This document shows, piece by piece, positions 2,821-33,762 of a DNA stretch of 38,237 nucleotides (position 1 is its first letter; each line of letters opens with the position of its first letter). This stretch comes from Rhizobacter sp. GTDB lineage: Bacteria > Pseudomonadota > Gammaproteobacteria > Burkholderiales > Burkholderiaceae_C. The notes under the pieces were generated by a model. It was not told the origin of the DNA, did not search any database, and saw nothing but the letters and a program-made list of their open reading frames with translations. The stretch lies in NCBI GenBank assembly GCA_025355545.1, contig JANXZN010000267.1:1-38237 (forward strand), given 5' to 3'. A program made the translations under genes and the position numbers.

Positions 2821-2906
2821 CGGGTCAGCGCAATGGCTCACTGGTTGTTGCACGGGGATGGCAGACGACCGGTGCGCGTACGGGTCGCCGCCAGCGCCGT
2901 CGGGAG

Positions 2907-3313: not shown

Positions 3314-3471
3314 GGCGGCGCTCCTACGCATGATGGTGTGTCGCGAGCCTAGCGCATTGCGGCCGCCAAGGGAATTCGATCGCTATGGGATCGCGCTTGC
3401 GCGGTCCGGTCCGCCTGCGTACATTGGGAAGCGTCCGACCGGCACCTCATAGCCAACCGAGGAGAGAGCAC

Positions 3472-4272: not shown

Positions 4273-4362
4273 GCCAGCGGCCACCGGCACGCTGGACGGC
4301 AACCACGCGGCAGGGCATATTCATTCCGTTCGCGAGTCCCATTTCAACCGAGGAGCACTCCG

Positions 4363-4797
4363 ATGGCAGCCGACCAGCCCAGCGACAAGGACATCAAGAA
4401 GGCGACACAGCAACTCAAGGATATCCGGGCATTCCTGAAGGAACTCGAGGACGCGGGTATCGAGGTCCCACCGGCGCTGAAGAAATCGCTCAATCGCCTG
4501 CAGGTAGCGCTTAACACTGCCGAGGATCTCGGTGCCGCGTTCGACGAGGCGAGCAAGGCCCTGGCGACACTGGAGAGCGACCTGATGAGCGCGTGTTCGA
4601 AGGTCGACGCCGAGATGCGGGGTGTCTGCGAAGCTCAGGTGACCCGGCAGTGGCAGGCCCGCTCGGTGAAGTTCACCCTCGACTACAAGAATCCCGACTC
4701 GGTGAGCGCGGGCTTCATCAAGAAGACGGTGCAGCGCTACACCCCGGGCCTGATCTGCAAGCACTGGGATTACTGCAAGAAGCAGGCAGGCAAGTAG
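4363..4797 (+). CDS. Uncharacterised 144-aa protein (MAADQPSDKDIKKATQQLKDIRAFLKELEDAG...)
   Basis: ORF preceded by GAGGAGCACTCCG; gene is collinear with 3472..4272. Confidence 0.75.
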   Translation: MAADQPSDKDIKKATQQLKDIRAFLKELEDAGIEVPPALKKSLNRLQVALNTAEDLGAAFDEASKALATLESDLMSACSKVDAEMRGVCEAQVTRQWQARSVKFTLDYKNPDSVSAGFIKKTVQRYTPGLICKHWDYCKKQAGK

Positions 4798-4886: not shown

Positions 4887-6758
4887 CTATCCCAATGACT
4901 TGAGCAGTGCCGCCAGTTCGGGGTCCATCGGCGCCGGTGCCGCCGGTTCGTCCGCGGTCGGCCCCTCCGCAGTCGGCTCGTCGAGGCCTGCCAGCAGCGT
5001 GGCCAGTTCGTTGTCAGGCGTGTCTGCCTCGACAGCGGAGGCCCGAGGCGCTGGCTCTTCGACAACACCCCCGGATTCCGCCGTTCCATCCGTCGGTTCG
5101 TCTGCCGGTTCATCCGACGCTTCTTTCGACGCTTCTTCCGGCGCCTCCTCCGCAGGCTCATCTGTCGGTTCATCTGCCGCCGCCGGCACCCCGCTGCTGG
5201 CCTTGCACACCATGGGCGTCACGTCGGCGTCGACCTGCGTACCTGCGGTATTGATCTTCGATTGCACCGCGAAGCGCGTCTCGCCCGACACCCTTCGCGG
5301 CGTCGCGCTCGCAGTCGCCAGGCCGTCGCCGTTGATCGCTTCGAGCCCGCTGAAGCGCACCAGCGCTTCTCCCTTGTGCGCCATCACTGCGTTGATGCCG
5401 ACCTCGCGCAGCAGCGAGGCCACGTTGGTCGAGATCATCCGGTCCGTGCAAGGCAGCGCGACGGAATCGCCGTCGTCGTCGACGTAGTGGTGGAACGGCA
5501 GGTCATCGATAGTGAGCGGCGCGCCGCGCTGGGCCAGCACGGTCAGCGCCAGCAGCGCCGGGTGGCCCCAGAGCATGCCGCGCAAACCGGCTTCGCGGCT
5601 GAACTCCTCAAAGGCGAAGGACGAGATTGGGTCGCTCTTCTTGCCGTACGGATGACGCAGCAGGAAGCGGGGCCCCAACAGACCGAGGAACGACGCCGCA
5701 GGCAGCTCGCGCAGCGCCGCAAACGCTTCGCGCACGAGACGATGTGGCAGTTCCTTCCGATCGGCAAACGGGTCGGTGTTGATGCCGGTAAGAAGCGACG
5801 CATTCGCATGCGAGGCGATCTGCGCGGCGCGGCCGAGCAGTTCGGCGTGCGGCGGCGTTGCGTCGAACTGGTAGCAACCGGCGACATAGGTGTAGCCACC
5901 GTCAGCATGCTGCGACGGCGTCTCGACGAGCAGCTTGTACAGCCCGGTGTCACAGAGGTCCTGCGCCCCGCTGAGATCGGCAGCAAATTCCTCCGCGCTG
6001 ATGTCGAACAGGTGCACCTGCAACTGGTGGCCGGTCTCGAGCCGGCGCAGCACGAAGTCGACGCCGCGCCAGAGCGATTCGATGTTCTGGAAGTCGGCGT
6101 GGTGCAGCAACGCACGCATCGCATCGCTCAAGCCCGCATCGACGGCGGCGACGAGCGTGTCTTTGTTCGGGCTCGCCGCCGCGTGCACGAACGGTCCGAC
6201 GACGCGCCGCAGCAGGCCTGCGACCGCGTCGTCACGCCGGGCGAGGCTCGTCGGGCGGCCGGTCAGCCTCGCAAAGTCGTCGAGCGTCGCGCCGCGTGAC
6301 GGTGCGCCGCCGCGAGCGCCCGCCCTGCGCGCGATGCTCGACGCGCGCGGACCCGCGTTCTCGGCCCACGCCATGACCTCGGCCGCCGCGGCGGCAAACT
6401 GACTCGTCTGGTTCAAGCGCTTGCGCAGCGCCGCGAGTTCGGCGAACAGAGGCACGCCCGCGTAGATCGTGTCGGGATGGAACGCATCGAGATCCGCGAG
6501 CTCGATCGCCACCGGCGCGCCATCCGCGCCCAGCGGCAGGGTCAACGAGAGCTGCAGCCGCTGCATCGCGTCCTCGAGGGTATCGAACTCGACGTTCAAC
6601 GGCTTGCGCTTGCCGAGATCCGCACCCGTCTGCAGCCGTCCGTGACTGGCGCCGGCGCCGAAGTCGCCGAGAATGGCGATGCGCAGTGGGCGCTTGGCAT
6701 TCCATGACGGCGCCTCGGCTGAAAGGCTGCCGAAATCGGGGGAGTAGCTGTCGCTCAT
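4887..6758 (-). CDS. TssB-TssC (VipA-VipB) fusion-like T6SS sheath-related protein with acidic DEP-rich C-terminal tail
   Basis: N-terminal region RPLRIAILGDFGAG...KPLNVEFDTLEDAMQRLQLSL...IELADLDAFHPDTIYAGVPLFAELAALRKRLNQ has the TssB layout. The following DFQNIESLWRGVDFVLRRLETG...LYKLLVETPS...Y.FDATPPHAELLGRAAQIASHANASLLTG aligns by eye with TssC DFQKLESAWRGLHYMVNNTET...LFKKLYEEEY...YHFDHSPPDVELLGEMAKIAASAHCPFITG encoded at 31753..33243. Start set at MSDSYSPDFG. Confidence 0.8.
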   Translation of the reverse strand: MSDSYSPDFGSLSAEAPSWNAKRPLRIAILGDFGAGASHGRLQTGADLGKRKPLNVEFDTLEDAMQRLQLSLTLPLGADGAPVAIELADLDAFHPDTIYAGVPLFAELAALRKRLNQTSQFAAAAAEVMAWAENAGPRASSIARRAGARGGAPSRGATLDDFARLTGRPTSLARRDDAVAGLLRRVVGPFVHAAASPNKDTLVAAVDAGLSDAMRALLHHADFQNIESLWRGVDFVLRRLETGHQLQVHLFDISAEEFAADLSGAQDLCDTGLYKLLVETPSQHADGGYTYVAGCYQFDATPPHAELLGRAAQIASHANASLLTGINTDPFADRKELPHRLVREAFAALRELPAASFLGLLGPRFLLRHPYGKKSDPISSFAFEEFSREAGLRGMLWGHPALLALTVLAQRGAPLTIDDLPFHHYVDDDGDSVALPCTDRMISTNVASLLREVGINAVMAHKGEALVRFSGLEAINGDGLATASATPRRVSGETRFAVQSKINTAGTQVDADVTPMVCKASSGVPAAADEPTDEPAEEAPEEASKEASDEPADEPTDGTAESGGVVEEPAPRASAVEADTPDNELATLLAGLDEPTAEGPTADEPAAPAPMDPELAALLKSLG

Positions 6759-6790: not shown

Positions 6791-7354
6791 CTAGAGATGG
6801 CCGGCGAGCAGGCGGGCGAACGCGTCGGCTTCCGGCAACCCGGTTGCCGAGACGGGCGGGGACAACTGGCCCTCGCGCTCGCACCACCAGAGTGTCTGCC
6901 CTTCCTGCGGCCAGGCCGGTCCACTGTCGTTCGCGTCGTCGAGACCACCGAGCTCTGCATCGAGTCGCTCGGCATCCCAGTCGCCGTTCAGTGCCGCCAC
7001 GGCGACTTCCTCCAGCGACCGCAGCCAGGCCGCCGGCGCAACGTCCTCATGACGGCCGCGCGGACGAACAACGGTGAGCGGAAAGTAGCGGCCGACCCGA
7101 TCGACCGAGGGCATCAGCACGCCGGCATAGCCAGGGCTGAGTTCGAAGGGCACGCCGGCACCAAGCGCGAAACGCCTCACCGGGGCGGCCAGAAATGCGT
7201 CAAGCCAGGCCTCGTCGCTCTGGCGCCAATGGCCCAGGCCCGCGGCCAGCCAGCGATCCCATGGTTCGACGAACAGCGGTGGCAACCGGCGGCCCGCGAA
7301 GTCGCCCAGCGCCGGCAGCTTGCCGTACCAACCGGGTAGAACGGCAGCCGGCAT
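6791..7354 (-). CDS. tagF: TagF-like T6SS-associated protein (DUF2094 family)
   Basis: MPAAVLPGWYGKLPALGDFAGRRLPPLFVEPWDRWLAAGL...GVLMPSVDRVGRYFPLTVV matches the TagF N-terminal signature; adjacent to tssM. Start chosen at 7354. Confidence 0.85.
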   Translation of the reverse strand: MPAAVLPGWYGKLPALGDFAGRRLPPLFVEPWDRWLAAGLGHWRQSDEAWLDAFLAAPVRRFALGAGVPFELSPGYAGVLMPSVDRVGRYFPLTVVRPRGRHEDVAPAAWLRSLEEVAVAALNGDWDAERLDAELGGLDDANDSGPAWPQEGQTLWWCEREGQLSPPVSATGLPEADAFARLLAGHL

Positions 7355-7420
7355 GTCAGCGCCCGCCCGGCCGCCACAAGCCGCGAGGTCGCCCACTCTC
7401 GTGAACCAACGGCCCCGAGC

Positions 7421-7450
7421 GCCGCCGCGGGGGGCAGCGAACGAAGTGAG
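7421..7450. repeat. REP-like motif copy 1 (gccgccgcggggggcagcgaacgaagtgag)
   Basis: Shares ggggggcag-gaacgaagtga with 14406..14440; lies in the gap between tssM and tagF. Confidence 0.5.
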
Positions 7451-7467: not shown

Positions 7468-10400
7468 TCAGAGCAAGTCGGGACAACGGAAGGTCTGCAT
7501 CTCGCGCAAGCGCAGCGGATTCAGTGCGCTGGCCGAAATGACTTCGAGCTTGGCGCGGCGGCCGTCGACGTTGAGCACGACGGTGAAGCGTTCTGGTTGC
7601 GGCGACGGCTGAACCTCGTGCTGACCGAACAGCCGGAACAGCGCCCACGGTCCGTCGAAGATCTCCTGCCCTCCACTCAGATCGAGCTTGAGCTGCGAGG
7701 CCACGCGCGTGCTCGGCCAGGTGATTGTCTGAGCGGCGGTGTTGCCCGCGGTGAACCGCAGGACCTGGCCATCGATGCTGAGCACCAGCTCCTTGGCAGG
7801 GGGATCCATCTCCAGCACGCGCATATCGACCTTGAAGCCCGGGGTCTTGCCACCGGCCCGGAAGAAGGCTTCGCGGATCTTGGCGGCGCGCTGGAAGTCC
7901 GCCAGCGCCGCGCCGCCGGGCGGCTTGGTGCCATCGGACAGCGGGCGGTAGGCCCAGGGCGTGACGCCGACGTCGACGACCGCGGCCAGCCGGCGCTGGA
8001 AGAAATCATCGAGCTGGCCGCCGACACCGAACATCTGGCCGAAGTCGTCGGGCAGCACGTCGGCGCGACTGCCCAGCGCAAACGGATAGCGCCCCGCGAT
8101 GGTCTTGATGCATTGCTCGGCGAGCGGTTTGATCTCGGCGCTCAGCCCTTGGCGTTCGGCGACCCGGCCTTGCGTCGCACCGGCATCGGCGAGTGTCGTC
8201 AGCATCGACTTGATCGGCTCGGGCTGCATGGCCGCGGCCGCCTTCGCCGCCGCGCCGCCCCCGCCGCCGGCCGGCGGTGCTGTCTTGGTCTTCTGCGCCG
8301 CATCGATCGCGGTGAGGTTCACGAAGACCTCGTTGAAGAGCTTCATGGTCTCGTCGATGGGTGGCGGCGTGCCGCTGACCATGCGCTGCAAGGCCGCAAA
8401 GTGATCGTCGACGAGCATCTCCAGCGGCCTGCCCGGCGTCTTCACGTCGTCACCGCCCGTGGCCTTGCCGACCACGGCGGCGATGTCGTCCTTGGCCTTG
8501 CTCAGCTTCTTCAGCGCCGGGGTGCTGAACTTGATCGAGCTGCCCGCTGCGGGCGCCGCTGTCGCCGCCGCCGCGGCAACCGCGGCGCCGAGCTGGGTCT
8601 CGCGCGCCACCGCACGCAGGTACGACGTCAACGGCGAATCCGGCGCAGCCAGCAGCCCGGCCACCACGAGGCTGCGGTCCAGTCCCCCCAGTTTCACCAG
8701 CCGGACGTCGGCGATGTACTGGTCCCAGACCTTGATGTACTCCCCCAGATACAAGCGCTGCACCCGTGCTCGGAGTTCGGGATCGATCTTGCCGACACCG
8801 AGCACGCCTGCGGCCGCCTGCTTGAGCGATTCGGCAGGCGCGCTAACGCCGAGCACCCAGCGCTCCTCTGCCGCCAGCACGGTCGCCACCTTCGTGATGG
8901 CCGGGTTGAAGCCCTTGACGTAGCCATCGCGGGTGAAGAGCCCGGGAATGCCTTTCGTCAGCGGCTGGCCGCTCGCGCGCTCGAACACCCGCACCGCGTC
9001 GGGCCCGCCGGCAGCGGCCGCGCTGAAGTCCGGCACGTCGCCGCCGACGCGGGTGCGCTTCAAGCGGCTGAAGATGCGGTATTCGAGCGGGTAGGCGATT
9101 AGCATCTCGCGCACGTTGGCCACCAGCGTCTTGTCCATCTGCGTCGGTGCCTTGGGGGCGCCTTCGGAGACCGCGGCGTCGAGATGCTGGGCCAGTGCAG
9201 CGCGTTGATCGACCGACATCGTCGAGGCGAGATTGGCGTCCCAATCGAACGCGACCCAGCCCTTGAACGACTCCGCATCGAAATGCTCGGGCGTGTAGAG
9301 CATCAGGTAGCCCTTCAGCGCTTCGTAGGCAAGCTCGAGGTTGTCCCGGTTCACGGCGCGCAGCCGCTCTTCGAGCCGACGTGCCACGCGCGGCATCAGG
9401 CCGTTGTCGAGCAGCTTGTGATAGCCGATGTCCGCCCCGGCCGCGACGTAGGGGCCCTGGTACAGGCCGAGCCTGTTCACCAGCGGCGGATCGTCGAGCG
9501 CGAATGCCGATGGGGTGGCCACTGCGGCGATCTTGTCCAACGCATTCGGCAGGACCGACAGTTCGGCGCCGGTGGCCGGCGGCACCGCGGCGACCGCGGC
9601 CTGGACCTCGGGCAGGCGCTCCTTCACCTGCGCGAGATAGGCCACGTTGCGTTGGTAGCCCAGGCCCCAGACGGCGACCAATCCCACCGCCACGACGAGC
9701 ATCGTCGCGAGCGCGGCAACGCGCCAGCGTCGGCGCCGGGTCTCGGCCTGTAGATTCCTGCCGACCAGGCCTTGTTCGGCAAACACCACTTCCTTCAGCA
9801 GGCGCGTCAGAAAGAAGGACTTGCCGCGCCACGCGGGCACCGCCGCCGCACGCTGCTCGACCCCGAACGTGCGGCCCAGCGTGCCGAGCACGCGGTCGAT
9901 CGGCGAGCCTTCCTGCGTGCCGCTGGTGAAGTAGATGCCGCGCACAAAGGCCCGTTCCTCGAGGTCACCCCCGCCTTCGAACACCTGCTCAAGGAAGCCG
10001 CCAAGCAACCCTTTCAAGCCTTCGAACTGCTGCGGAAAAGTGAAGACCGCGGCGCGCCGCAGCACGTCCGGCTCGGCCTGCATGCGCACGATCAGGCTGT
10101 CTCGCAGTCGCTTGCCGAGTGCCGTGAACTCGCTCGAGAAACTTTGCAGCGGCGTCGCACTGGCGGCGTCGGGTTCCTTGGGGTCGTGCGGGAACGAGAA
10201 GCCCCAGACCTGGTCGCGCTCCTCGCGGCCGAACTCGCCGAAGGTTTCGTTGAAGCCGGCAATCAGATCGCACTTGGTGACGAACACGTAGACCGGCGGT
10301 CGCACGCCGAGTCGTGACTGCAGCTCCTGCAGGCGCGTGCGCAGCTTCTGCGCATGGTCCTTGCGGTCGGCCGGGCTCTGGCGCAGCAAGTCCTCGATGT

Positions 10401-11076
10401 TGACCGTCAGCAGCACACCGTTCAGCGGCTGACGCGGCTTCGACTTGCGCAGCAGTGCGAGGAAGGTTTCCCAGGCCGCGGCATCGACGGCCGAATCGGA
10501 ATCCTGCGAGGTGTAGCGGCCCGCGGTGTCGATCAGCACCGCCTCGTCGGTGAACCACCATTCGCAGTTGCGCGTGCCGCCGACCCCACGCACCGACGCC
10601 TGGCCCATCTTGCCGGCCAGCGGGAAGGTCAGCCCGGCGTTGAGCAGCGCCGTGGTCTTGCCCGAGCCCGGTAGGCCGATGAACATGTACCAGGGCAGCT
10701 CGTACAGGAACTGCCCCCGCTTGAGCCACGACGACTTGCCGCTCTGGCGGGCACTCTCCCCCAGCACCTTCAACGCCTGGCTGAAGCGCTCCTGCAAGGC
10801 TTGCGCTTCGCGCTCGACGCTGTTCGGGCCGGCGGCCAGGCCGGCCACCAGGCGCTGGTTGGTGCGCCGGCGCCGCCAGGCGCGGATGCCGAAGACCACC
10901 GCGAAGACCAGCAGCAAGATGACGAGCGCAACCACTCGTTCGCCGATGCCGTCGAGCGGATGCTCGCCACGCAGTTCGATCAGCGGGCCCGCCCACCAGA
11001 TCAGCGCCGCGAGCAGCAGCAAGCCGATCACGGCCAAGGTCACCGGGTGCAGCAGGGCGGAAAGGAAACGCTTCAT
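7468..11076 (-). CDS. tssM: T6SS membrane complex protein TssM (IcmF)
   Basis: 1202 aa; N-terminal transmembrane segments, Walker A GLPGSGKTT, IcmF-type region (GGTRNCEWWFTDEAVLIDTAGRYTSQDSD). Confidence 0.97.
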   Translation of the reverse strand: MKRFLSALLHPVTLAVIGLLLLAALIWWAGPLIELRGEHPLDGIGERVVALVILLLVFAVVFGIRAWRRRRTNQRLVAGLAAGPNSVEREAQALQERFSQALKVLGESARQSGKSSWLKRGQFLYELPWYMFIGLPGSGKTTALLNAGLTFPLAGKMGQASVRGVGGTRNCEWWFTDEAVLIDTAGRYTSQDSDSAVDAAAWETFLALLRKSKPRQPLNGVLLTVNIEDLLRQSPADRKDHAQKLRTRLQELQSRLGVRPPVYVFVTKCDLIAGFNETFGEFGREERDQVWGFSFPHDPKEPDAASATPLQSFSSEFTALGKRLRDSLIVRMQAEPDVLRRAAVFTFPQQFEGLKGLLGGFLEQVFEGGGDLEERAFVRGIYFTSGTQEGSPIDRVLGTLGRTFGVEQRAAAVPAWRGKSFFLTRLLKEVVFAEQGLVGRNLQAETRRRRWRVAALATMLVVAVGLVAVWGLGYQRNVAYLAQVKERLPEVQAAVAAVPPATGAELSVLPNALDKIAAVATPSAFALDDPPLVNRLGLYQGPYVAAGADIGYHKLLDNGLMPRVARRLEERLRAVNRDNLELAYEALKGYLMLYTPEHFDAESFKGWVAFDWDANLASTMSVDQRAALAQHLDAAVSEGAPKAPTQMDKTLVANVREMLIAYPLEYRIFSRLKRTRVGGDVPDFSAAAAGGPDAVRVFERASGQPLTKGIPGLFTRDGYVKGFNPAITKVATVLAAEERWVLGVSAPAESLKQAAAGVLGVGKIDPELRARVQRLYLGEYIKVWDQYIADVRLVKLGGLDRSLVVAGLLAAPDSPLTSYLRAVARETQLGAAVAAAAATAAPAAGSSIKFSTPALKKLSKAKDDIAAVVGKATGGDDVKTPGRPLEMLVDDHFAALQRMVSGTPPPIDETMKLFNEVFVNLTAIDAAQKTKTAPPAGGGGGAAAKAAAAMQPEPIKSMLTTLADAGATQGRVAERQGLSAEIKPLAEQCIKTIAGRYPFALGSRADVLPDDFGQMFGVGGQLDDFFQRRLAAVVDVGVTPWAYRPLSDGTKPPGGAALADFQRAAKIREAFFRAGGKTPGFKVDMRVLEMDPPAKELVLSIDGQVLRFTAGNTAAQTITWPSTRVASQLKLDLSGGQEIFDGPWALFRLFGQHEVQPSPQPERFTVVLNVDGRRAKLEVISASALNPLRLREMQTFRCPDLL

Positions 11077-11088: not shown

Positions 11089-12411
11089 TCAATCGGCCAC
11101 GAACAGCGTGACTTCGACGCGCCGGTTGCGCGCGCGCCCCGCGGGAGTGGCGTTGTCGGCGATCGGCTGCGCATCGGCAAGCCCTTCGGCGCGCACGCGC
11201 TCGGGTCCGACCTGCCGGACGAGTTCGGAACGGACGGCTTCGGCGCGCTCCTTTGACAAATGCCAGTTCGACGGGAACCGCGCGGTACGAATCGGCTGGT
11301 TGTCGGTGTGGCCGCTGACCAGCACATTGCCCTTGAGCGTGGCCAGTGCCTGGCCGATGCTCGGCAGCAAGGGCCTGAAGGCCGATGCGACGACCGCGCT
11401 GCCCGGCTCGAAGAACCCGTCGCCCTTGATGACCACGATCGAACGGTCGACCAGATCCTGCACCTCCACCTGGCCCGCCTTGATCTGCGGGGCCAACAGG
11501 CCCGCTAGCCTCGGCTTCGGTGCCGGCGGTGGCGGTGGTGGTGGCGGCGCGGCGAGCTGGACCTTCTTCGCGTCCAACTGGGCGAGCTTGTCGAACAGGC
11601 CGTCGGCCGAGTTGGCGAGCGACCAGCGAAAGCCCGCGTAGATGATCGCCAGGAGCACCAGGATGGCCGACGCGATCAACCACAGCGGCACACCGTCGAC
11701 GAGGCGCTGGCCGCGCACCGCGACCCCCTGCCAGCGCGGTGACAACGTCCGCTCGGAGGAACGGCCCTGGCCGAGCATCTGCGCGAGGCGCTGACGCACG
11801 CTGTCGAGTTGCGCTTCGCCGTTCTCGATCACCCGGTAGCGGCCCTGGAATCCAAGCCCCAGGACGACGTAGAGCAACTCCAGCAGGCTGCGATTGGCCT
11901 CGACGTTCTCGGCCAGCTTGCTCATCAGCTGGAATACTTTCTCGCCCCCCCAGGACTCGTTGTGGAATTGCACCAGCAAGCTGTTGCCGGACCAGACGCC
12001 GGAACCGCCCCAGGGCGTGCTCGCCGCCGATTCGTCGAGCAGCGTGCACAGGATGTAGCGCCCGGCCACCACCTGCTCATTCGGCAGGCCCTGGGCGCGG
12101 GCCTGCGATTCGAACTTGCGGATGCCCTCCGAGAGCGCATCGCGCAGCCCGGCCGGGTTCGGGTGACGCGCCGTGTGCCGCACACGCGGTGCGGCGGCCA
12201 GCAACGGCATCGCCGCGTTGACCAGCGGGTTCAGGCTCCCGCTCATCATCGTGTCCAGCGACAGTGGCACGTCCTTGCCGGTCGAGCCCTGGGGCGCGGC
12301 CGGCGAGGCCGGCGCTGCGGCGGCGGCCGCCGCCCCGCCCCGGCCCGCGCTCGGCTTGATGACCGTGCGGTCGGAACCGAAGGCGGCGAACGGGTCCCCG
12401 GTGTCGCTCAT
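11089..12411 (-). CDS. tssL: T6SS membrane complex protein TssL (DotU) with C-terminal OmpA-like peptidoglycan-binding domain
   Basis: DotU region (YILCTLLDESAASTPWGG...WSGNSLLVQFHNESWGGEKVFQLM), a single predicted transmembrane segment, then OmpA-like VLVSGHTDNQPIRTARFPSNWHLSKERAEAVRSEL...RRVEVTLFV. Confidence 0.96.
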   Translation of the reverse strand: MSDTGDPFAAFGSDRTVIKPSAGRGGAAAAAAAPASPAAPQGSTGKDVPLSLDTMMSGSLNPLVNAAMPLLAAAPRVRHTARHPNPAGLRDALSEGIRKFESQARAQGLPNEQVVAGRYILCTLLDESAASTPWGGSGVWSGNSLLVQFHNESWGGEKVFQLMSKLAENVEANRSLLELLYVVLGLGFQGRYRVIENGEAQLDSVRQRLAQMLGQGRSSERTLSPRWQGVAVRGQRLVDGVPLWLIASAILVLLAIIYAGFRWSLANSADGLFDKLAQLDAKKVQLAAPPPPPPPPAPKPRLAGLLAPQIKAGQVEVQDLVDRSIVVIKGDGFFEPGSAVVASAFRPLLPSIGQALATLKGNVLVSGHTDNQPIRTARFPSNWHLSKERAEAVRSELVRQVGPERVRAEGLADAQPIADNATPAGRARNRRVEVTLFVAD

Positions 12412-12421: not shown

Positions 12422-12590
12422 AGGGCCTGTTAACGCTATGGGAAGGCATCGGCCCTGCGGGTGATCTCAGCAAACAACCGCCCGCCGCGTTGCAAATGCT
12501 CGCCGTAGGCGCGGCTACGCCTGCGCTTTGCGCCTTGCGGGCGGCTGTTTGCTGAGTCACGCGTGTCCTCCCATAGCGTTAACAGGCCCT
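12422..12590. repeat. Nested inverted-repeat (MITE/REP-like) element between tssK and tssL
   Basis: Outer arms agggcctgttaacgctatggga (12422-12443) / tcccatagcgttaacaggccct (12569-12590) are perfect over 22 bp. Inner arms ctcagcaaacaaccgcccgc (12466-12485) / gcgggcggctgtttgctgag (12537-12556) match 19/20. Central cgtag-gcgcgg-ctacg hairpin. Confidence 0.85.
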
Positions 12591-13926
12591 AGTTGCGCAC
12601 GGCCCAGAACTCGATCTCCAGCCCGGGGAAATCGCCGGCCACGTGCATGGCCATGCCGCCGGAGCTTTCCAGCTGCTTCCACATGTCGTTGCCGCGGGTT
12701 TCGAGTTCGAAATAGGTGAAGCCGGCGTGGTACGGAATTTGCCGCGGCGCCACCGGCAGCGGCCGCATCGACACCCCCGGCAACTGCAGGTTCACCAGGT
12801 CACGGATGCGCTCGACCGTGCCGATCTTGACCTGCGTCGGGAAACGGGCACGCAGAGCGTCGCCGGGCAGCTGCGAACTCACAGCGAACACGAACTGCGC
12901 GTTGCGCTGCAGATCCACGTCCGGAATCATCGCAACGCGCACGCCGTACTTGCGGTCCTGAAGTTCGATCGGGATTGCGGTCTGTTCCATCACCATCGAC
13001 AGCGATTGCCGGACCTCGTCCATCAGCGGCTTGAAGCAGATCGCCGGGTCGTCATGCCCGTAAGCCGGGATGTTGCCCGGGCGGCGCCCCTCACGGAAGG
13101 TCGACATCTCGCCGATCAGAGCGACGACGAAATAGTAGAAGTCCTTCGGATGCAGCAGCGACGCCTGGCGGAACTGTGCAATCACCGGTTCGTTGCGGTT
13201 GATCAACAGCAGCATCAGGAAGTCGGCGATCTCGCCGACCCCTGCGCGCCCCGGCTGCGCCAGCCGGGCCGCCAGCGCCTCGCCGCGCTGATGCAGCAGC
13301 CCGTGCAGGTCGCGCAGCTGCGACGCGAGCAGCTCGTTGCCGCCGCAATGCAGCGTCGGCGGGATGTACGCGGCATCGAGCACCAGCTTGTTATCGGCAC
13401 GGCGCTCGACCACCTTGCACAGGCCGATCGTCACCACACCTTCGCCGGCGTCGCGCGCGAGCACGATGCGCAGATTCATGCGGCCGATCTGGATCGGCGC
13501 GGCGCGCTGTCCGCTCGCATTGGTGTCACCGACCTCGACTTCCGCGGCTCGGAATCGAGGCGGCATCGAACCGGCATCGGATTCGGCGTCGGTCTCGGCA
13601 ACGCCGGGGCGCTGCAGCGTGATCGCCAGCACCACGAGTTGGTCGCGCGTGTCCGGTGGAACATCGAATGCGGCCGGCGCCGGGTCCTGCCCGGGCACGT
13701 CGAACGCGAGCCCGTCGGGCATCACGCCCTGCGCCGCGATGATTGCCACCTTGCCGAGATTCAGCGCCGAGCTGTCCAGCGTCAGCGACAGGTGCCCCCA
13801 GCAATACGGCGCGGTCGCGGCGAGGCGCATCTGCGCCTGCTGTGCGAGAAAACGGTCATGCTGCTGCAAATGCTGCGGCTGGAGGAACATGCCCTCCGTC
13901 CAGATCACCTTGTTGGTCCAGGTCAT
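12589..13926 (-). CDS. tssK: T6SS baseplate protein TssK
   Basis: MTWTNKVIWTEGMFLQPQHLQQHDRFLAQQAQMR... is the characteristic TssK N-terminus; 445 aa. Confidence 0.97.
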   Translation of the reverse strand: MTWTNKVIWTEGMFLQPQHLQQHDRFLAQQAQMRLAATAPYCWGHLSLTLDSSALNLGKVAIIAAQGVMPDGLAFDVPGQDPAPAAFDVPPDTRDQLVVLAITLQRPGVAETDAESDAGSMPPRFRAAEVEVGDTNASGQRAAPIQIGRMNLRIVLARDAGEGVVTIGLCKVVERRADNKLVLDAAYIPPTLHCGGNELLASQLRDLHGLLHQRGEALAARLAQPGRAGVGEIADFLMLLLINRNEPVIAQFRQASLLHPKDFYYFVVALIGEMSTFREGRRPGNIPAYGHDDPAICFKPLMDEVRQSLSMVMEQTAIPIELQDRKYGVRVAMIPDVDLQRNAQFVFAVSSQLPGDALRARFPTQVKIGTVERIRDLVNLQLPGVSMRPLPVAPRQIPYHAGFTYFELETRGNDMWKQLESSGGMAMHVAGDFPGLEIEFWAVRN

Positions 13927-14450: not shown

Positions 14451-15242
14451 TCAGGGCTCGCCGACCCAGACCGCGATGCCGCTGAAGTTGTCGTGGCCGG
14501 TCTTGCCAGCCTCGGCCGCATGCAGCAGCACGAGTTGTTCCATTCCCGCGAGCCACGCGCCCGGATCGGCGGCGGCGCTCAGGCAGGCACACATCTCGGC
14601 CTCGTCGACGTATTCCCACAGCCCGTCGGTGCACAGCAGAAAGACATCGTGCGGCTTCAGTTGCCAGGGCTGCGTCGCGGTCGAGACGAGCAAGTCTTCG
14701 GGGCGCGTCCCCAGCGCCGACTGCAGTTCGCTGCGCCGCGGGTGCGTGCGCATCTGCTGCGGCATCAGCAGACCGGCGTCGACCATGGTCTGCACGACGC
14801 TGTGGTCGCGCGTGTGCGACAGCATCAGGCCATCGCGAAACAGGTACAGACGCGAGTCACCCGCGTGGCCCCACAGCGCCTCGCGACACCCGAGGTCGAC
14901 GAACAGCGCGACGACGGTGCTGTGCATGTCTTTCGTCTTGCCGGACTCGGACTGATGCCGCCGCAAATGCGCATTGGTGTCGATCAGTAGGTCTCTGACT
15001 TCGTCGAGGCGCGCCAACGGCGCCAGCGAGACCTGGTCGATGATGTGGCGCACGACCAGCTTCGAGGCGATGTCGCCGCCGCCATGTCCGCCGGCACCGT
15101 CAGCGACCACACAGCACAGGCGCTGTTCGCTCTGCCAGTGCCCGCAGGCGTCTTGGTTGTTGGCGCGTCCGCCCTGTCGCGACAGGGTCGCCAGCTCAAT
15201 GTGCCCGGTGTGTTTGTCCTCGCGCTCCAGAACATCGCTCAC
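14451..15242 (-). CDS. pppA: PP2C-type serine/threonine phosphatase, T6SS post-translational regulator (PppA-like)
   Basis: PP2C motifs: NNQDACGH, VVADGAGGHGGG, WGHAGDSRLYLFRDG, LLCTDGLWEYV, GHDNFSGIAV. GTG start at 15242 abuts the tagH stop; an upstream ATG (15299) overlaps tagH. Confidence 0.92.
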   Translation of the reverse strand: MSDVLEREDKHTGHIELATLSRQGGRANNQDACGHWQSEQRLCCVVADGAGGHGGGDIASKLVVRHIIDQVSLAPLARLDEVRDLLIDTNAHLRRHQSESGKTKDMHSTVVALFVDLGCREALWGHAGDSRLYLFRDGLMLSHTRDHSVVQTMVDAGLLMPQQMRTHPRRSELQSALGTRPEDLLVSTATQPWQLKPHDVFLLCTDGLWEYVDEAEMCACLSAAADPGAWLAGMEQLVLLHAAEAGKTGHDNFSGIAVWVGEP

Positions 15243-15243
15243 C

Positions 15244-16881
15244 TCAGACCTCCCGGCGCTCGGCGTCGCGCTGATCGTGCAAGCGATCGACGTGCGCATC
15301 GTAGGCTTTCAGGAACGCCTTGCCGAACACACCCTGGAAGTCGTCAGCGGCTTCGTTGCGGATGCGGGCGTAGTGCTCGGTGAACAGCTCCCACAAACGC
15401 GCGCCACGGCTCGCCGGGAGCAGGCTTTGCAGCAGCGAACGGTCGCCGAGCTGGCCTTCGAGCGTAGCCGGGTCGAAGCGTTGCAAGCCAGCCTCGAGCA
15501 CCGCCTGCATGCCCGCGACGAACGCGAACTGATGCACGCGCAAATCGTTGTAGGTGTCGCGCATTGCTGGGGCCGCCGCCATAAAGCCGCGGGCCGGCGG
15601 GGCGAGCAGATGCTGCAGCGCCACGTCGACGTTCGGTGAAAACTTCAGCGGGTTGTTGCTTTTCGCGCCAATGGTGGTGACCTCGGCGCGCAACTCGTGC
15701 TTGACGGTGCTGCGGGCGCGCACCAGATCGACGGTGCCGCCCACGGCCTCGCGCAGGAGCTGGCCGATCAACTCCATCAGTTCGGACGTCAGCGCGGGCA
15801 ACTCGAGGGTTGGCGCATTGAGCCCGCGGCGCAATGCTTCGAACAGTGCGCCGCTGTCTTCCGGCCGCGGTATCGCCGATGGTCGTGCAGCGGGCGGGGT
15901 GTGCAGCGGGAGCGGCAGCTCGGCAGGGGCGAGCGCCGGCGCTGCCGTCGTGTGCACCGCGCTGACCGGCACTGCCTCGAGGTTCACGTTTGTGTCCCGC
16001 GACCGCCCGGCGCCATCCGCCGGCAACACGACCTTGGCCGGCGCAGCAGGCTTGATGAACGTCGGCGGAATGAACGGGCGATTCAGGTCCGACAGCTGAT
16101 CGGCCTCGCTCGCCGCGCTGGCCCTCGGTGCGCTTTTCAACGACCGCAGCGGGTCGGCGTCGGCGGCCATGTTCGGCTGCGCCATAGGGGCATCCAGCAC
16201 CGAGTCCTTGAGCGGGTCGCCGCCGCTCACGGGCGAGAGACCGAACAACTGATCGAGCGAGCTCGGCTGCGCCGACGGCGAGTTCAGTCCGGGCACAAGC
16301 TCCGCGGGCGCCGCACCGCCCAGCTCGAGCCCCAAGGCATCGCGTCGCGGCGCCGCACCGGGCGCGACGATACCCGGCGAGCGGGGGGCGAACGGATCCC
16401 AGTCCATCGGGATACCGCCGGCCTGCGGCGCCGCGGCCGGTGCAGCGGACTTGGCCGCGCCACCTTGCCTGACCAACGGGTCGAACGGTGGTCCGCCGGC
16501 CGATGGCATCGCCGTGGCGGGGCCGAGCAGCCCGGCGAAAGGATCGATGGCAGTTGCCGCGCCGGCGCCACCGCCCATCGAGACGCTCAGCTCGTAGCCG
16601 CAGATGGCGAGGCGATCGCCCGCGGCGAGCGGCGCTTCGCGTCCACTGGCGAGCGCTCGCCCATTGAGCGTGATGGGGTTGCTGCCGCGGTCGATGATGG
16701 CAAAGCTGCCGTTCCGGTACACCACCTGCGCCGCCACGCGCGACACCATGCGCTCGGGATCGGGCAAAACCAGCTGGTTCGTCTCGGCACGCCCGATCAA
16801 GCCCCCGAGCTCGTCGAAATGGGCCCGCAGCGTGCCGTCGGCCGGCGTGTCGTTCAAGGCGATGACGGTAAGAGTGATCAC
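15244..16881 (-). CDS. tagH: T6SS-associated FHA-domain protein (TagH/Fha-like)
   Basis: N-terminal FHA domain (GGLIGRAETNQLVLPDPERMVSRVAAQVVYRNGSFAIIDRGSNPITLNGRAL) plus a C-terminal helical domain found in T6SS FHA proteins. Confidence 0.92.
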   Translation of the reverse strand: MITLTVIALNDTPADGTLRAHFDELGGLIGRAETNQLVLPDPERMVSRVAAQVVYRNGSFAIIDRGSNPITLNGRALASGREAPLAAGDRLAICGYELSVSMGGGAGAATAIDPFAGLLGPATAMPSAGGPPFDPLVRQGGAAKSAAPAAAPQAGGIPMDWDPFAPRSPGIVAPGAAPRRDALGLELGGAAPAELVPGLNSPSAQPSSLDQLFGLSPVSGGDPLKDSVLDAPMAQPNMAADADPLRSLKSAPRASAASEADQLSDLNRPFIPPTFIKPAAPAKVVLPADGAGRSRDTNVNLEAVPVSAVHTTAAPALAPAELPLPLHTPPAARPSAIPRPEDSGALFEALRRGLNAPTLELPALTSELMELIGQLLREAVGGTVDLVRARSTVKHELRAEVTTIGAKSNNPLKFSPNVDVALQHLLAPPARGFMAAAPAMRDTYNDLRVHQFAFVAGMQAVLEAGLQRFDPATLEGQLGDRSLLQSLLPASRGARLWELFTEHYARIRNEAADDFQGVFGKAFLKAYDAHVDRLHDQRDAERREV

Positions 16882-22100: not shown

Positions 22101-24791
<2,691 letters not shown>

Positions 24792-27811: not shown

Positions 27812-28339
27812 TCAGCGGCGCGTATCGTGCACGGTCGTGCTGCCGGTTTCGAAATCGACCTCGGCGGACAGCAGAAGCTCCAGCGGCACCGGCTGCGCCC
27901 ACATGCTGCCGCGGATCGTGAGCTGCATGGTGTTGTGGTGGTTCCTGGAGGCGATCTGGATCGTCACCGACAGCGTCTTGGCGATGATGCGCGGCTCGAA
28001 CGTCACAATCGCCTGCTTGATGGCTGCTTCCATAGCCATCTTGTCGAGAGAAGACTTGGTGCTACCGGCAAACGCAGGCATGCCGAAGTTCAGAACCGAG
28101 CGGCAGGCATGCGGGTAGGGCCGCCAGAGTTCGAGCTCCTTCAGCCGGACGGATGCCATCTCCGGCTCGGGGCGAATCGCATTGAAGAGCCACGACAGAT
28201 CGCGTGTGATGGCCGCGCGCAATTGCTGTCGCGTCAGCACCCGTGCCTCGACGGTCTCTTGGCTGTCCAGAGGGTGGTCGTCGGTCAGCCGGTCGAGCAG
28301 CGAGGGTTGCAGGCGGTCGCGCGAGCGAAGTTCAACCAT
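27812..28339 (-). CDS. tssE: T6SS baseplate protein TssE (gp25-like)
   Basis: LQPSLLDRLTDD...VLTRQQLRAAITRDLSWLFNAIR...SVLNFGMPAFAG; gp25-like. Start at MVELRSRDRL. Confidence 0.93.
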   Translation of the reverse strand: MVELRSRDRLQPSLLDRLTDDHPLDSQETVEARVLTRQQLRAAITRDLSWLFNAIRPEPEMASVRLKELELWRPYPHACRSVLNFGMPAFAGSTKSSLDKMAMEAAIKQAIVTFEPRIIAKTLSVTIQIASRNHHNTMQLTIRGSMWAQPVPLELLLSAEVDFETGSTTVHDTRR

Positions 28340-29201
28340 GGCCGGCCTCGGCCGGTTCGGGCGCCGGGACGCCTGGCATCGCTTCGAACTCGATCGATCG
28401 GACCGACAGCAAGTCGTGTTCACCTTCGTCGGTGATCAGCACACGCTGCCCCAGGCCCAGCCAGCGCTCCTCGCCGCCGCCCTCCGCCAGCCGCCACTCG
28501 GTCTTGCGCGCCATCAGAATCTGATCATCCTCGCTGCGTTCTGACCCGGCGTAACGCGTAGGCAGCATCGCGATTGCCTCGCCGCCATTAGCAAACTGGA
28601 GTTGCGCCGGCAGCCAAACCATGTCGCGCAGATCGGTGGGCACCTCGATGCCCACGCGCGACAAACGTGCGAACGGGATCCAGCAATAGCGGCCATTGAC
28701 CATCGCCTCGAGCACCGGCCCGAGGCGCGAATCGGCGTCCGCGATCCATTCGAACGGAGCGCCATTGATTTGGCCGCGACTGGTCGGGGCAGCCGCCAGT
28801 GCACTGGAGCCCAGGTCACTCGCCAGCGCGGCCTCGCCTGCGCCGGCACGCAGCATCGACTCGATCAAGCTTGCCAACCATTCTTCGGGCTCGCCAAACA
28901 GCATCGGTGAGCGGCGGCCTTCGAAGACCGCGGCGCGGATCTTCTCGCAGCGCAGCGCATGGCCGACCATCTCGCGCATCGGGGCGGCGGCAGGATCCAT
29001 CTCGGCCACGACGTTGAGTTGCGTGTGCGCGCGCTCCCACTGGCCGAGGACGCAAAGCAATTGCGACAGAAAGATGCGCAGCCTTGCGTTCGCCGGCGAG
29101 GCTTTGACCGCTGCGGTCAGCGATGCCAATGCGGCGCGCGGCGTACCGGCTCGAATCGCTGCTTCCGCTGTGGCCAGGGGATCGTTGGACTCAGAAGCCA
29201 T
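28332..29201 (-). CDS. tagJ: TagJ/ImpE family T6SS accessory protein
   Basis: TPR-like N-terminus and IRAG.PRAALASLTAAVKASPANARLRIFLSQLLCVLGQWERAHTQLNVVAEMDP...; WIPFARLSRVGIEVPTDLRDMVWLPAQLQFANGGEAIAMLPTRYAGSE typical of ImpE. Adjacent to tssE. Confidence 0.9.
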   Translation of the reverse strand: MASESNDPLATAEAAIRAGTPRAALASLTAAVKASPANARLRIFLSQLLCVLGQWERAHTQLNVVAEMDPAAAPMREMVGHALRCEKIRAAVFEGRRSPMLFGEPEEWLASLIESMLRAGAGEAALASDLGSSALAAAPTSRGQINGAPFEWIADADSRLGPVLEAMVNGRYCWIPFARLSRVGIEVPTDLRDMVWLPAQLQFANGGEAIAMLPTRYAGSERSEDDQILMARKTEWRLAEGGGEERWLGLGQRVLITDEGEHDLLSVRSIEFEAMPGVPAPEPAEAGHG

Positions 29202-29781
29202 GGCCGCAATCCGTGCAAAAGCGCGCCGCGCGCATGCACATCGTGCCGCAACCCGGACAGGACTTGTGCGTGGAAGCCATGTCGAAGCCACACTCAGCGC
29301 AAAAGCGGCCGCCGCCGAAAGCGGCCTGGCAGTTGGGGCAGGCCATGCCCGCGCTGGCATTGCCGCCGCCGGACGAGGCGACCGACGGCGAACCGCGCTC
29401 CGCGGACGGCTGCTCGCCCTTGCCGCCGCAGGCCTCGCAGTGCTGCGTGCGCGGATTCCAGCAGTCTTCGCAGACCGTCTTTTGGCAACTCCGGCATTCG
29501 TGGTAGCGCAGTTCGGCCAGCGCGATCGCATCCTGCAACGCGGCTTCGCGGGCGCCCTTTTCGCCGGTCTCGGACGCGAAGCCCAACACCCGCGCCAACT
29601 TGCTGTAACCGGGAAGATAGTAACCGTACTTGTAGATCAGCCCGGCAAGGCGGCCGCGGCGGTAGGGTGCGTAGGGGCTTTTCCACCGGCGCGCGCAGTT
29701 GCCGCAATAGAACTCGAACTGGAACCCAGCGCTGATGCTAGACCCGACCTTGCTCAAGTCTTGATAGTTGGTGAGGCTCAT
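29191..29781 (-). CDS. Multi-zinc-ribbon protein embedded in the T6SS locus
   Basis: Repeated CXXC pairs: CGNC, CRSCQKTVCEDC, CEACGG, CPNC, CAECG, CPGCG, CTDCG; overlaps the tagJ start. Confidence 0.85.
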   Translation of the reverse strand: MSLTNYQDLSKVGSSISAGFQFEFYCGNCARRWKSPYAPYRRGRLAGLIYKYGYYLPGYSKLARVLGFASETGEKGAREAALQDAIALAELRYHECRSCQKTVCEDCWNPRTQHCEACGGKGEQPSAERGSPSVASSGGGNASAGMACPNCQAAFGGGRFCAECGFDMASTHKSCPGCGTMCMRAARFCTDCGHGF

Positions 29782-31752: not shown

Positions 31753-33243
31753 TCAGCCCTTCTCGGACGGCAGCTTCGACACGAGCCGAAGCGAAACGGT
31801 GAGCCCTTCGAGCTGATAGTGGGGCTTGAGGGCGAAAACCGATCGGTAGTAGCCCGGCGCGCTTTCGTCCTCCTCGACAGTAACTTGAGCCGCGGCAAGT
31901 GGCCGCTGCGCCTTGGTAGTCTCGGTCGAGTTCGTCGGGTCGCCATCCACATAGTTGAGGATCCACTTGTTGAGCCAGCGCTCCATGGCCTCCCGCGACT
32001 TGAACGAGCCGACCTTGTCGCGCACCATGCACTTCAGATAGTGCGCAAACCGGTTGCACGCGAACAGGTACGGCAGCCGCGCTGCCAGCGCGGCGTTGGC
32101 GGTGGCGTCCGGGTCGTCGTATTCGATGGGCTTTTGCAGCGACTGCCCACCGATGAAGGCAGCGAAGTCGGAATTCTTGCGGTGGATCATTGCGAGGAAA
32201 CCGGCCTTCGAAAGTTCGGCTTCGCGGCGATCGGAGATCGCGATCTCGGTCGGGCACTTCATGTCGACACCACCATCGTCGGTCGGGAAGGTGTGCGTCG
32301 GCAGGTTCTCGACGGCGCCGCCGGATTCGACGCCACGGATGCGCGAACACCAGCCATAGAGCTTGAACGAGCGGTTGATGTTGGTGGCCATTGCATAGGC
32401 CGCGTTGCACCAGGCGTACTTGTCGTGGTCGGCGCCGACCGTGTCCTCCTCGAAGTTGAAGGCTTCCACCGGGCTCGTTTTTGCGCCATAGGGCAGTCGG
32501 CCGAGGAAGCGCGGCATGCACATCGCGAGGTAGCGTGAATCGTCGCTTTCACGCAGCGAGCGCCATGCGGCGTATTCGGGTGTCAGGAAAATCTTGGTCA
32601 GATCGCGCGGGTTGGCCAGTTCGCTCCACGACTCCATCTGCATGACGGTGGGTGAGGCGCCGGTGATGAATGGGCAATGTGCCGAAGCGGCGATCTTCGC
32701 CATCTCGCCCAGGAGTTCGACGTCCGGCGGGGAATGGTCGAAATGGTAGTCGCCGACGATCGCGCCGAACGGCTCGCCACCGAACTGGCCATATTCCTCT
32801 TCGTACAATTTCTTGAACAACGGCGACTGATCCCAGGCGGTGCCCTTGTAGCGCTTCAGTGTCTTGCCCAGATCCTGCTTGGAGATCGCCATCACGCGAA
32901 TCTTCAGGAACTCGTCGGTCTCGGTGTTGTTGACCATGTAGTGCAAGCCGCGCCACGCCGATTCCAGCTTCTGGAAATCGGGCGTGTGCAAGATTGCATT
33001 GACCTGCTCGCTGAGCTTGCGATCGATCGCGGCGATCATCGCCTCGATACTCTGGACCGTGTCGGTTCCGATCAGCTTCGTGTGCGCAAGCGCCTGCGCC
33101 GCCAAGGTCTGAACCGCGGCCTCGACCGCCGAGCGCGCCTCGTCGGATTTGGGCTTGAATTCCTTCTTCAGCAAATTGGCAAAGTCGTTGCCTTCGAGCG
33201 TGACGCCGGCAAACGAGGAGCCTGCAGCCTGTTGTTCCGCCAT
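31753..33243 (-). CDS. tssC: T6SS sheath large subunit TssC (VipB)
   Basis: HTPDFQKLESAWRGLHYMVNNTETDEFLKIRVMAISKQDL...FGAIVGDYHFDHSPPDVELLGEMAKIAASAHCPFITGASP...FAHYLKCMVRDKVGSF...WLNKWILNYV. Confidence 0.98.
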   Translation of the reverse strand: MAEQQAAGSSFAGVTLEGNDFANLLKKEFKPKSDEARSAVEAAVQTLAAQALAHTKLIGTDTVQSIEAMIAAIDRKLSEQVNAILHTPDFQKLESAWRGLHYMVNNTETDEFLKIRVMAISKQDLGKTLKRYKGTAWDQSPLFKKLYEEEYGQFGGEPFGAIVGDYHFDHSPPDVELLGEMAKIAASAHCPFITGASPTVMQMESWSELANPRDLTKIFLTPEYAAWRSLRESDDSRYLAMCMPRFLGRLPYGAKTSPVEAFNFEEDTVGADHDKYAWCNAAYAMATNINRSFKLYGWCSRIRGVESGGAVENLPTHTFPTDDGGVDMKCPTEIAISDRREAELSKAGFLAMIHRKNSDFAAFIGGQSLQKPIEYDDPDATANAALAARLPYLFACNRFAHYLKCMVRDKVGSFKSREAMERWLNKWILNYVDGDPTNSTETTKAQRPLAAAQVTVEEDESAPGYYRSVFALKPHYQLEGLTVSLRLVSKLPSEKG

Positions 33244-33267: not shown

Positions 33268-33762
33268 TTATTCGGTGGGTTTGGGCGCGGCGCCGACGCT
33301 TTGCAGCAGCGCGGAGTCCTTCAGCACCTTGGAGATCAGCTCTTCAGCGCCGGCCTTGCCATCCATGTACGTGACCAGGTTCGCCAGTTGCCCGCGCGCT
33401 TCGAGCAACTGCTTGAGGCCGTCGACCTTGGCGGCCACCGCTGCAGGCGAGAAGTCGTCCATGTTCTCGAAGGTCAGATCGACCGCGAGGTTGCCCTCGC
33501 CCGTGAGCGTGTTCGGCACCATGAAGGCGACGCGCGGCTTCATGGCCTTCATGCGTGTGTCGAAGTTGTCGACATCGAACTCGAGAAACTTTCGATCCCC
33601 CACCGCAGGCAACGGCTCCTCGGGCTTTCCGGCCAGATCGGCCATCACGCCCATCACGAAGGGAAGCTGCACCTTCTTCTCGGCGCCGTAGAGTTCGACG
33701 TCGTATTCGATCTGCACCCGGGGCGCCCGGTTGCGGGCGATGAACTTCTGGCTGCTTCCCAT
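33268..33762 (-). CDS. tssB: T6SS sheath small subunit TssB (VipA)
   Basis: RVQIEYDVELYGAEKKVQLPFVMGVMADLAGKPEEPLPAVGDRKFLEFDVDNFDTRMKAMKPRVAFMVPNTL... Confidence 0.98.
   Translation of the reverse strand: MGSSQKFIARNRAPRVQIEYDVELYGAEKKVQLPFVMGVMADLAGKPEEPLPAVGDRKFLEFDVDNFDTRMKAMKPRVAFMVPNTLTGEGNLAVDLTFENMDDFSPAAVAAKVDGLKQLLEARGQLANLVTYMDGKAGAEELISKVLKDSALLQSVGAAPKPTE

What the first reader, a model, noticed from the sequence alone, without database searches (positions are those of the whole stretch)
4887..6758. Second sheath-like gene: an apparent TssB-TssC fusion in a locus that already has tssB and tssC
Seen: the N-terminal ~110 aa align by eye with TssB (ILGDFGAG..KPLNVEFDTLEDAMQRLQLS.. 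versus VMADLAGK..KFLEFDVDNFDTRMKAMKPRV..) and the middle aligns with TssC (DFQNIESLWRG.., PPHAELLGRAAQIA..LLTG). Canonical tssB/tssC are present at 31753-33762. The fusion ends before anything resembling the TssC C-terminal segment (RFAHYLKCMVRDKVGSF...WLNKWILNYV...). Inference: it may not polymerise as ordinary sheath and could act as a cap, initiator, assembly brake or specialised baseplate/sheath adaptor. Extra TssC-like genes in some T6SS groups are familiar to me in general terms, but I cannot verify how this fusion relates to them.
Basis: partly seen in the sequence, partly recalled or inferred. Interest (0 to 1): 0.85.

Follow-up and report, generated by a model that had tools for sequence, protein, structure and literature searches.

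The report
Non-polymerising TssB-TssC sheath-mimic protein
Next to a complete bacterial type VI "harpoon" lies an extra gene whose protein joins both halves of the harpoon's contractile sleeve but has lost the part that links sleeve subunits together; relatives occur in many bacteria alongside a normal sleeve, so it is probably an accessory that acts on the sleeve and not a building block of it.

Summary
The gene lies on the minus strand at 6758-4887 and encodes 623 aa. Residues 24-117 match TssB/VipA (PF05591) and residues 200-472 match TssC/VipB (PF05943), both above Pfam cut-offs. The TssC C-terminal handshake domain (PF18945) is absent, and canonical tssB and tssC in the same locus are complete. 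An AlphaFold model (mean pLDDT 82) shows a sheath-protomer fold; best PDB match P. aeruginosa TssC1. The family is under purifying selection, and its TssC part falls outside canonical TssC and ImpD in the tree. It is patchy in Gamma-, Beta- and Alphaproteobacteria and in Planctomycetota and Verrucomicrobiota MAGs. Canonical TssC was found in 30 of 32 fusion-bearing genomes checked. A longer relative, "TssCL", was published for roseobacters in 2022 (PMC9515649). The window gene is the short form of its C-terminal module, so such fusions are neither unpublished nor, as proposed there, restricted to roseobacters and recent. New here: the missing handshake domain, the broad range, and a motif (D[PA][DE]LxALLxxL) at the extreme C-terminus of 75 of 77 tailed members. 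I think it is a non-propagating sheath accessory whose tail docks a T6SS factor. That mechanism is inferred, not shown.

The parts
4887..6758 (-). TssB'-TssC' fusion gene (short form of the TssCL C-terminal module), 623 aa
6690..6758 (-). N-terminal segment before the TssB-like fold (residues 1-23); in relatives a short alternating hydrophobic stretch (MEYSVNFG, RIEFEVGF) sits where TssB has its donor strand; equivalence is inferred
   Evidence: hhalign does not cover it
6408..6689 (-). TssB/VipA-like domain, residues 24-117 (PF05591 positions 27-122 of 155)
   Evidence: hhalign family vs TssB probability 98.3, E 1.4e-14
6162..6407 (-). [quoted passage not shown]
   Evidence: alignment A3, model helix 159-165
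5343..6161 (-). TssC/VipB N-terminal domain, residues 200-472 (PF05943)
   Evidence: Foldseek 5n8n_B E 3.3e-14
4890..5270 (-). Acidic, low-complexity, predicted disordered tail, residues 497-623; occupies the place where VipB_2 (PF18945) would be
4983..5015 (-). Upstream tail motif copy DNELATLLAGL, residues 582-592
4893..4925 (-). Terminal tail motif DPELAALLKSL, residues 612-622, helix with pLDDT about 88
33268..33762 (-). Canonical tssB, complete, with the QKFIARNRAPRVQIEYDVEL N-terminus
31753..33243 (-). Canonical tssC, complete (VipB plus VipB_2)
33157..33186 (-). Canonical TssC N-terminal helix DFANLLKKEF, the EFASLL-type motif of the P. aeruginosa H1 class
6791..7441 (-). tagF, directly upstream of and co-directional with the fusion (32 nt gap)
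7468..11076 (-). tssM
11089..12411 (-). tssL (long form, OmpA domain)
12589..13926 (-). tssK
14451..15299 (-). PP2C phosphatase (PppA type)
15244..16881 (-). FHA protein (TagH type)
22101..24791 (-). clpV; N-domain closest to P. aeruginosa ClpV1 (4uqw)
28332..29531 (-). tagJ/ImpE (real start probably inside this ORF)
   Evidence: PF07024

Best explanation
It is an accessory sheath-protomer mimic of an H1-like (group 3) T6SS, the short form of the C-terminal module of roseobacter TssCL. Shown by sequence and model: it carries a TssB-like and a TssC-like part in one chain, keeps the outer and middle layers of a sheath protomer (domains 2 and 3), lacks the handshake domain, is under purifying selection, and accompanies a canonical sheath instead of replacing it. 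Inferred: it cannot propagate a sheath and cannot line the Hcp tube, so it associates with the sheath, or with sheath subunits, from the edge or the outer face. There its one to four C-terminal helical motifs dock a T6SS factor, most plausibly the machinery that reads the TssC N-terminal helix or turns the sheath over (ClpV/TagJ). In roseobacters the link to the sheath is covalent: a near-canonical TssB is fused in front through a long acidic repeat spacer. Identity as a non-propagating sheath mimic: about 0.95. The docking/turnover mechanism: about 0.35.
For: Domains and missing VipB_2. Handshake anatomy (TssC beta11-13 plus TssB beta1): PMC5807055. Fold: mean pLDDT 82, best hit 5n8n_B. Selection. 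Canonical TssC in 30 of 32 fusion-bearing genomes with an intact fusion ORF against 79 of 387 class genomes with any TssC-like match. Tail motif at the extreme C-terminus in 75 of 77 tailed members, 0.085 expected in shuffled tails; 2.2 copies per tail against 0.019 expected. The motif resembles the TssC class motif EFASLL: the canonical TssC helix ranks 11th of 11,044 seven-mers in the other window proteins scanned. ClpV, TssC and TssB of this locus are all of the P. aeruginosa H1 class. Fourteen roseobacter ORFs start with a TssB in frame with the module; those inspected are 69-79% identical to the window TssB.
Against: No interaction was tested. The motif match to TssC was found post hoc and ten other seven-mers score higher. 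Gammaproteobacterial members in loci with an EFASLL-class TssC (G188, G277) have no tail, so tail and TssC class do not covary. In P. aeruginosa the HsiC1 N-terminus is not required for ClpV1 binding (PMC4239648), so that helix may not be a ClpV ligand in this class at all. Most H1-like T6SS in the sample lack the protein, so it is optional.
Confidence: 0.4

Rival explanations
1. Sheath cap or assembly brake: a dead-end protomer that binds the growing edge and limits sheath length or the number of sheaths.
For: It lacks the acceptor strands and the TssC C-terminal arm, while an alternating hydrophobic N-terminal stretch could still act as the TssB donor strand. That is the geometry of a chain terminator.
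Against: Without domain 1 it cannot contact the Hcp tube, and without the TssC C-terminal arm it lacks one of the two arms through which canonical protomers join. It does not explain the conserved tail. The short tssA, the usual distal-end factor, is present.
Confidence: 0.25
2. VgrG or baseplate adaptor: it helps load a particular spike, or joins baseplate and sheath.
For: Recurrent vgrG neighbourhood in unrelated lineages: directly upstream of vgrG in roseobacters; divergent from vgrG in gammaproteobacteria G188, G277, G467, G312 and G171; near vgrG in planctomycete loci L099 and L120.
Against: In Burkholderiales, the window included, it is tagF-linked and vgrG is more than 13 kb away. Several orphan copies have no vgrG detected within about 9 kb. 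A sheath fold without domain 1 is no obvious VgrG binder.
Confidence: 0.15
3. Soluble chaperone or antagonist: it holds free TssB/TssC or blocks premature polymerisation in the cytosol.
For: Domain 2/3 surfaces are kept and handshake strands are missing, so it could bind but not extend. tagF, a posttranslational repressor gene, lies next to it in Burkholderiales.
Against: Its own TssB' and TssC' halves are in one chain and should satisfy each other. TssCL with a full TssB suggests a sheath-bound role in at least one lineage.
Confidence: 0.15
4. Decaying duplicate of sheath genes without function.
For: Low identity to canonical sheath proteins and patchy distribution.
Against: Core dN/dS 0.04-0.27 in ten pairs, invariant residues across phyla, conserved C-terminal motif.
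Confidence: 0.02

Closest known systems
TssCL of roseobacters (Leisingera sp. ANG-M7; PMC9515649, 2022)
   Same: Diverged VipA plus VipB domains in one chain, about 26-31% identical to the canonical subunits; canonical tssB and tssC also present; group 3/H1-like T6SS. The window protein aligns with the C-terminal half of the Leisingera protein at 38-41% identity, and both lie in one clade with 100/100 support.
   Different: TssCL carries an additional near-canonical TssB and a long acidic repeat spacer in front; the window protein does not. The paper found TssCL only in Alphaproteobacteria and took it for a recent event. The passages read do not mention the missing VipB_2 domain or the tail motif.
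ImpD / TssC40 (Atu4340 of A. tumefaciens; second tssC of rhizobia)
   Same: A second TssC homologue beside canonical TssC, essential for Hcp secretion in A. tumefaciens (PMC3702570); role unexplained (PMC5813230).
   Different: Has PF18945 and no PF05591, lies directly after tssC, and branches with canonical TssC. Some genomes hold both it and the fusion.
Canonical TssB/TssC (VipA/VipB) sheath subunits
   Same: Fold of domains 2 and 3; PF05591 and PF05943 above cut-off.
   Different: One chain; no PF18945; below both TIGRFAM equivalog cut-offs; acidic tail with motif.
TssE/gp25 sheath initiator
   Same: Also a partial sheath-protomer relative: the Pfam name of the TssC C-terminal domain is 'gpW/gp25-like'.
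   Different: The complement: TssE is the handshake-type domain alone, the fusion is the protomer without it. Comparison by domain names only.
TagA / long TssA with partner protein (sheath-end anchors)
   Same: Accessory factors acting on the distal sheath end (PMC7545191, PMC7896307, titles and abstracts only).
   Different: Different protein families; no sheath fold.

Membership tests
TssC/VipB | VipB N-terminal domain PF05943 | tested here: met
   118 bits, cut-off 27
TssC/VipB | C-terminal handshake domain PF18945 | tested here: not met
   absent by protein scan and by six-frame genome search
TssC/VipB | NCBIfam equivalog TIGR03355 cut-off 271.5 bits | tested here: not met
   115.5 bits
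TssB/VipA | PF05591 above cut-off | tested here: met
   33.2 bits, cut-off 24
TssB/VipA | NCBIfam equivalog TIGR03358 cut-off 97.25 bits | tested here: not met
   28.7 bits
TssB/VipA | Canonical N-terminus (TagJ-binding KF motif and donor strand) | tested here: inconclusive
   KF motif absent; a strand-like stretch is present in relatives but not aligned by hhalign
ImpD/TssC40 | PF05943 plus PF18945 without PF05591 | tested here: not met
ImpD/TssC40 | Groups with ImpD in the tree | tested here: not met
   ImpD lies with canonical TssC, split from all fusions with 100/100 support
TssCL (roseobacter) | Diverged VipA-VipB module in one chain next to canonical tssB and tssC | tested here: met
TssCL (roseobacter) | Additional full-length TssB at the N-terminus (two VipA domains) | tested here: not met
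   one VipA domain only; the ORF upstream is tagF
H1-like (group 3) T6SS, host system of the gene | TssC EFASLL-type motif, ClpV1-type N-domain, TagJ, TssB KF motif | tested here: met
Sheath cap / initiator / brake | Location at sheath end or effect on length | not testable with these tools
   needs imaging or complex structures

The most novel reading that the evidence does not exclude
The conserved C-terminal motif is a multivalent copy of the class-specific TssC N-terminal helix. The protein is then a sheath-attached platform that presents one to four such helices (about a dozen or more in roseobacter TssCL with its spacer) to ClpV, TagJ or an unknown reader, setting where or when the sheath is recycled. 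This would be a previously undescribed layer of T6SS control.
Probability: 0.22. Interest if true: 0.75.

Novelty: new variant of a known kind. Interest (0 to 1): 0.55.

Why it matters
T6SS sheaths are described as a two-protein lattice. A conserved family that copies both proteins in one chain, drops the part that makes the lattice, and always travels with the real sheath implies an undescribed accessory step in sheath assembly, ending or recycling. It gives a clean handle: one gene to delete and a 12-residue tail motif to remove. It also corrects the record. The published TssCL fusion is a lineage-specific extension of an older and much wider family, and databases label these proteins plain 'sheath large subunit', which can confuse TssC-based T6SS counts and trees.

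Tried and rejected
(1) ImpD/TssC40 identity: rejected by domains and tree. (2) Degenerate or decaying gene: rejected by dN/dS and conservation. (3) Replacement of a broken canonical pair: rejected. (4) Single-sequence AlphaFold: useless, pLDDT 41; the 74-sequence alignment fixed it. (6) A strict position matrix for the tail motif put the TssC helix only 104th of 12,027 windows; a similarity-weighted 7-residue version put it 11th of 11,044. Both are reported; the link is suggestive only. (7) Tail versus TssC class: no covariation (G188, G277), which weakens the mimic idea. (8) A first tree failed through a bad anchor pattern. In the second many fusions from the locus set were labelled 'TssC_oth' and some canonical TssC rows were dropped; the canonical-versus-fusion split was read from row identities, not from those labels. 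(9) Six searches for earlier work on TssB-TssC fusions in the open paper library: the relevant paper surfaced but was recognised only after and reading it. The library lacks most subscription papers. (10) A resemblance of the motif to CheY-binding peptides of CheZ/FliM came to mind from memory and was not tested.

Full report
WHAT IS THERE. The finding's interval holds one gene on the minus strand, 6758 to 4887, 623 codons, starting 32 nt after tagF. Its protein matches the small sheath subunit family (PF05591) at residues 24-117 and the large sheath subunit family (PF05943) at 200-472, both above the curated cut-offs, and nothing matches the C-terminal domain of the large subunit (PF18945). 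It falls well short of both NCBIfam equivalog cut-offs, so it is neither an ordinary TssB nor an ordinary TssC. The same locus has complete tssA, tssB, tssC, three hcp genes, tagJ, tssE, tssF, tssG, clpV, vgrG, an FHA gene, a PP2C gene, tssK, tssL, tssM and tagF. A six-frame search of the whole genome finds PF18945 once, inside canonical tssC.

FOLD. With an alignment of 74 relatives AlphaFold2 gives mean pLDDT 82, above 90 over most of residues 11-480. The only strong PDB matches are T6SS sheath large subunits, P. aeruginosa TssC1 (5n8n) first at E 3.3e-14; a TssB chain matches weakly. A profile of the family matches TssB, and TssC up to but not through the C-terminal domain, in PDB sequences. 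In the P. aeruginosa sheath, the handshake sheet that builds the tube consists of TssC beta11 and beta12, TssC beta13 of a neighbour and TssB beta1 of another neighbour (PMC5807055). Mapping the absent PF18945 onto beta11-beta13 is inference from that description. If it is right, the fusion cannot accept strands and lacks the TssC donor arm. Whether it keeps the TssB donor strand is open: relatives begin with a short alternating hydrophobic stretch in the right place (MEYSVNFG, RIEFEVGF), but profile alignment starts just after it.

FAMILY AND RANGE. In the window's own neighbourhood the gene is rare: 3 of 101 relatives. In an even sample of the class, 17 of 387 genomes carry it, plus one contig-edge fragment; a family profile separates fusions (E at most 5e-126) from canonical pairs (E no better than 2e-97). 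In a phylum sample one other intact copy and one copy with an internal stop were found besides the window. A scan of GTDB species representatives returned 80 named loci: Burkholderiales, Rhodobacterales, Rhodospirillales and Acetobacteraceae, other Proteobacteria, several Planctomycetota MAGs and one Verrucomicrobiota MAG. Canonical TssC (PF18945) is present in 30 of 32 fusion-bearing genomes with an intact fusion ORF; the two exceptions are drafts. No PF18945 hit lies at a fusion gene. Core dN/dS is 0.04-0.27 in ten pairs. In a tree of the TssC part, all canonical TssC classes and ImpD lie on one side of a long branch (100/100) and all fusions on the other; the tailed fusions form one 100/100 clade. 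The root is not known, so 'old' means at least older than the spread across these classes, barring extensive transfer.

THREE FORMS. (i) Minimal, about 460-516 aa, in Gammaproteobacteria, often as an orphan gene among unrelated genes or divergent from vgrG. (ii) Tailed, about 515-680 aa, the window's form, linked to tagF in Burkholderiales and to clpV or tagH in alphaproteobacteria. (iii) Long: in many Rhodobacterales the same ORF begins with a full TssB (69-79% identical to the window TssB in those inspected, with the intact QKFIARNRAPRVQIEYDVEL start), then a spacer rich in acidic repeats and LDxLLxxL-like motifs, then the tailed module; 14 loci have all this in one frame, up to about 1,620 aa. 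RefSeq start sites in two plasmids (L053, L054) cut off the first part. Form (iii) is the published TssCL (PMC9515649). Short forms L090 and L091 branch near the base of the Rhodobacterales clade, so the long form looks derived from the tailed form. The paper's suggestion of a recent alphaproteobacterial fusion is therefore not supported for the fusion itself.

THE TAIL. In 75 of 77 complete tailed members the protein ends in D-[PA]-[DE]-L-[ADE]-A-L-L-x-[SD]-L within four residues of the stop; shuffled tails give 0.085 expected. Tails carry 2.2 copies on average against 0.019 expected. The members are not independent, but 36 different terminal 10-mers are represented. No other gene product of the window that was scanned has the motif, apart from one loose match in TssE. 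AlphaFold makes both copies in the window protein helices, the last with pLDDT about 88. The canonical TssC of this class has a similar N-terminal helix, [DE]F-x-x-LL-x-[KR]-E-F (21 of 21 listed), known in P. aeruginosa as EFASLL, in place of the ClpV-binding LLDEII of other classes (PMC4239648). By similarity scoring this helix ranks 11th among 11,044 seven-residue windows. I treat the likeness as a lead: it was found after the fact, it does not covary with tail presence, and in P. aeruginosa that helix is not needed for ClpV1 binding.

HOW IT PROBABLY WORKS. Shown: a sheath-protomer fold without the lattice-forming domain, kept by selection, found alongside a working-looking sheath. Inferred: it touches the sheath or its subunits without extending it. 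In roseobacters the attached TssB should let it enter a real protomer, leaving the module tethered outside the wall, which speaks for an outer-surface or edge role. Inferred with less confidence: the tail motif recruits a T6SS factor, with sheath turnover (ClpV/TagJ) my first choice. Cap or brake, VgrG/baseplate adaptor and soluble antagonist stay open.

NOVELTY. The fusion architecture is published for roseobacters; its function is not. Hence 'new variant of a known kind'.

Noticed in passing
L053:1513-6144 and L054:18009-21701: The RefSeq/PLSDB annotation of these roseobacter genes starts too late; the open frame includes a full TssB and a long repeat spacer upstream.
   Followed up: yes
window 29811-31655 (-): Three tandem Hcp paralogues of different length (217, 185 and 178 aa), all with PF05638; Eleftheria terrae (L052) has four at the same place.
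   Followed up: no
window 824-1666 (-): Protein of unknown family whose relatives turn up in fusion-bearing loci L055 and L084 (a Verrucomicrobiota MAG); possible T6SS-linked gene.
   Followed up: no
window 1909-4797 (+): Three genes convergent with the fusion: a LysM protein with a helical tail, and two small unknowns with only weak matches to helical or coiled-coil families; unknown relation to the T6SS.
   Followed up: no
window 16895-20011 (-): Downstream of vgrG: a DUF4123 adaptor, a 580-aa protein without Pfam match and a further unknown; looks like a VgrG cargo module. Kept in Eleftheria (L052) and G040.
   Followed up: partly
L054 and L053: An ion-transporter gene sits just upstream of the TssCL gene in these roseobacter T6SS clusters, and a caspase-family gene lies nearby.
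   Followed up: no
L052:35247-37346: Cluster of RebB-type R-body genes about 14 kb downstream of the fusion on the same plasmid of Eleftheria terrae.
   Followed up: no
L120, L084, L098, L099, L085: MAGs labelled Planctomycetota or Verrucomicrobiota carry both the fusion and canonical TssC with PF18945; either T6SS there or binning error.
   Followed up: partly
G801:C30:179893-181416: A fusion relative with one internal TAA; may be a broken copy or two separate genes.
   Followed up: no
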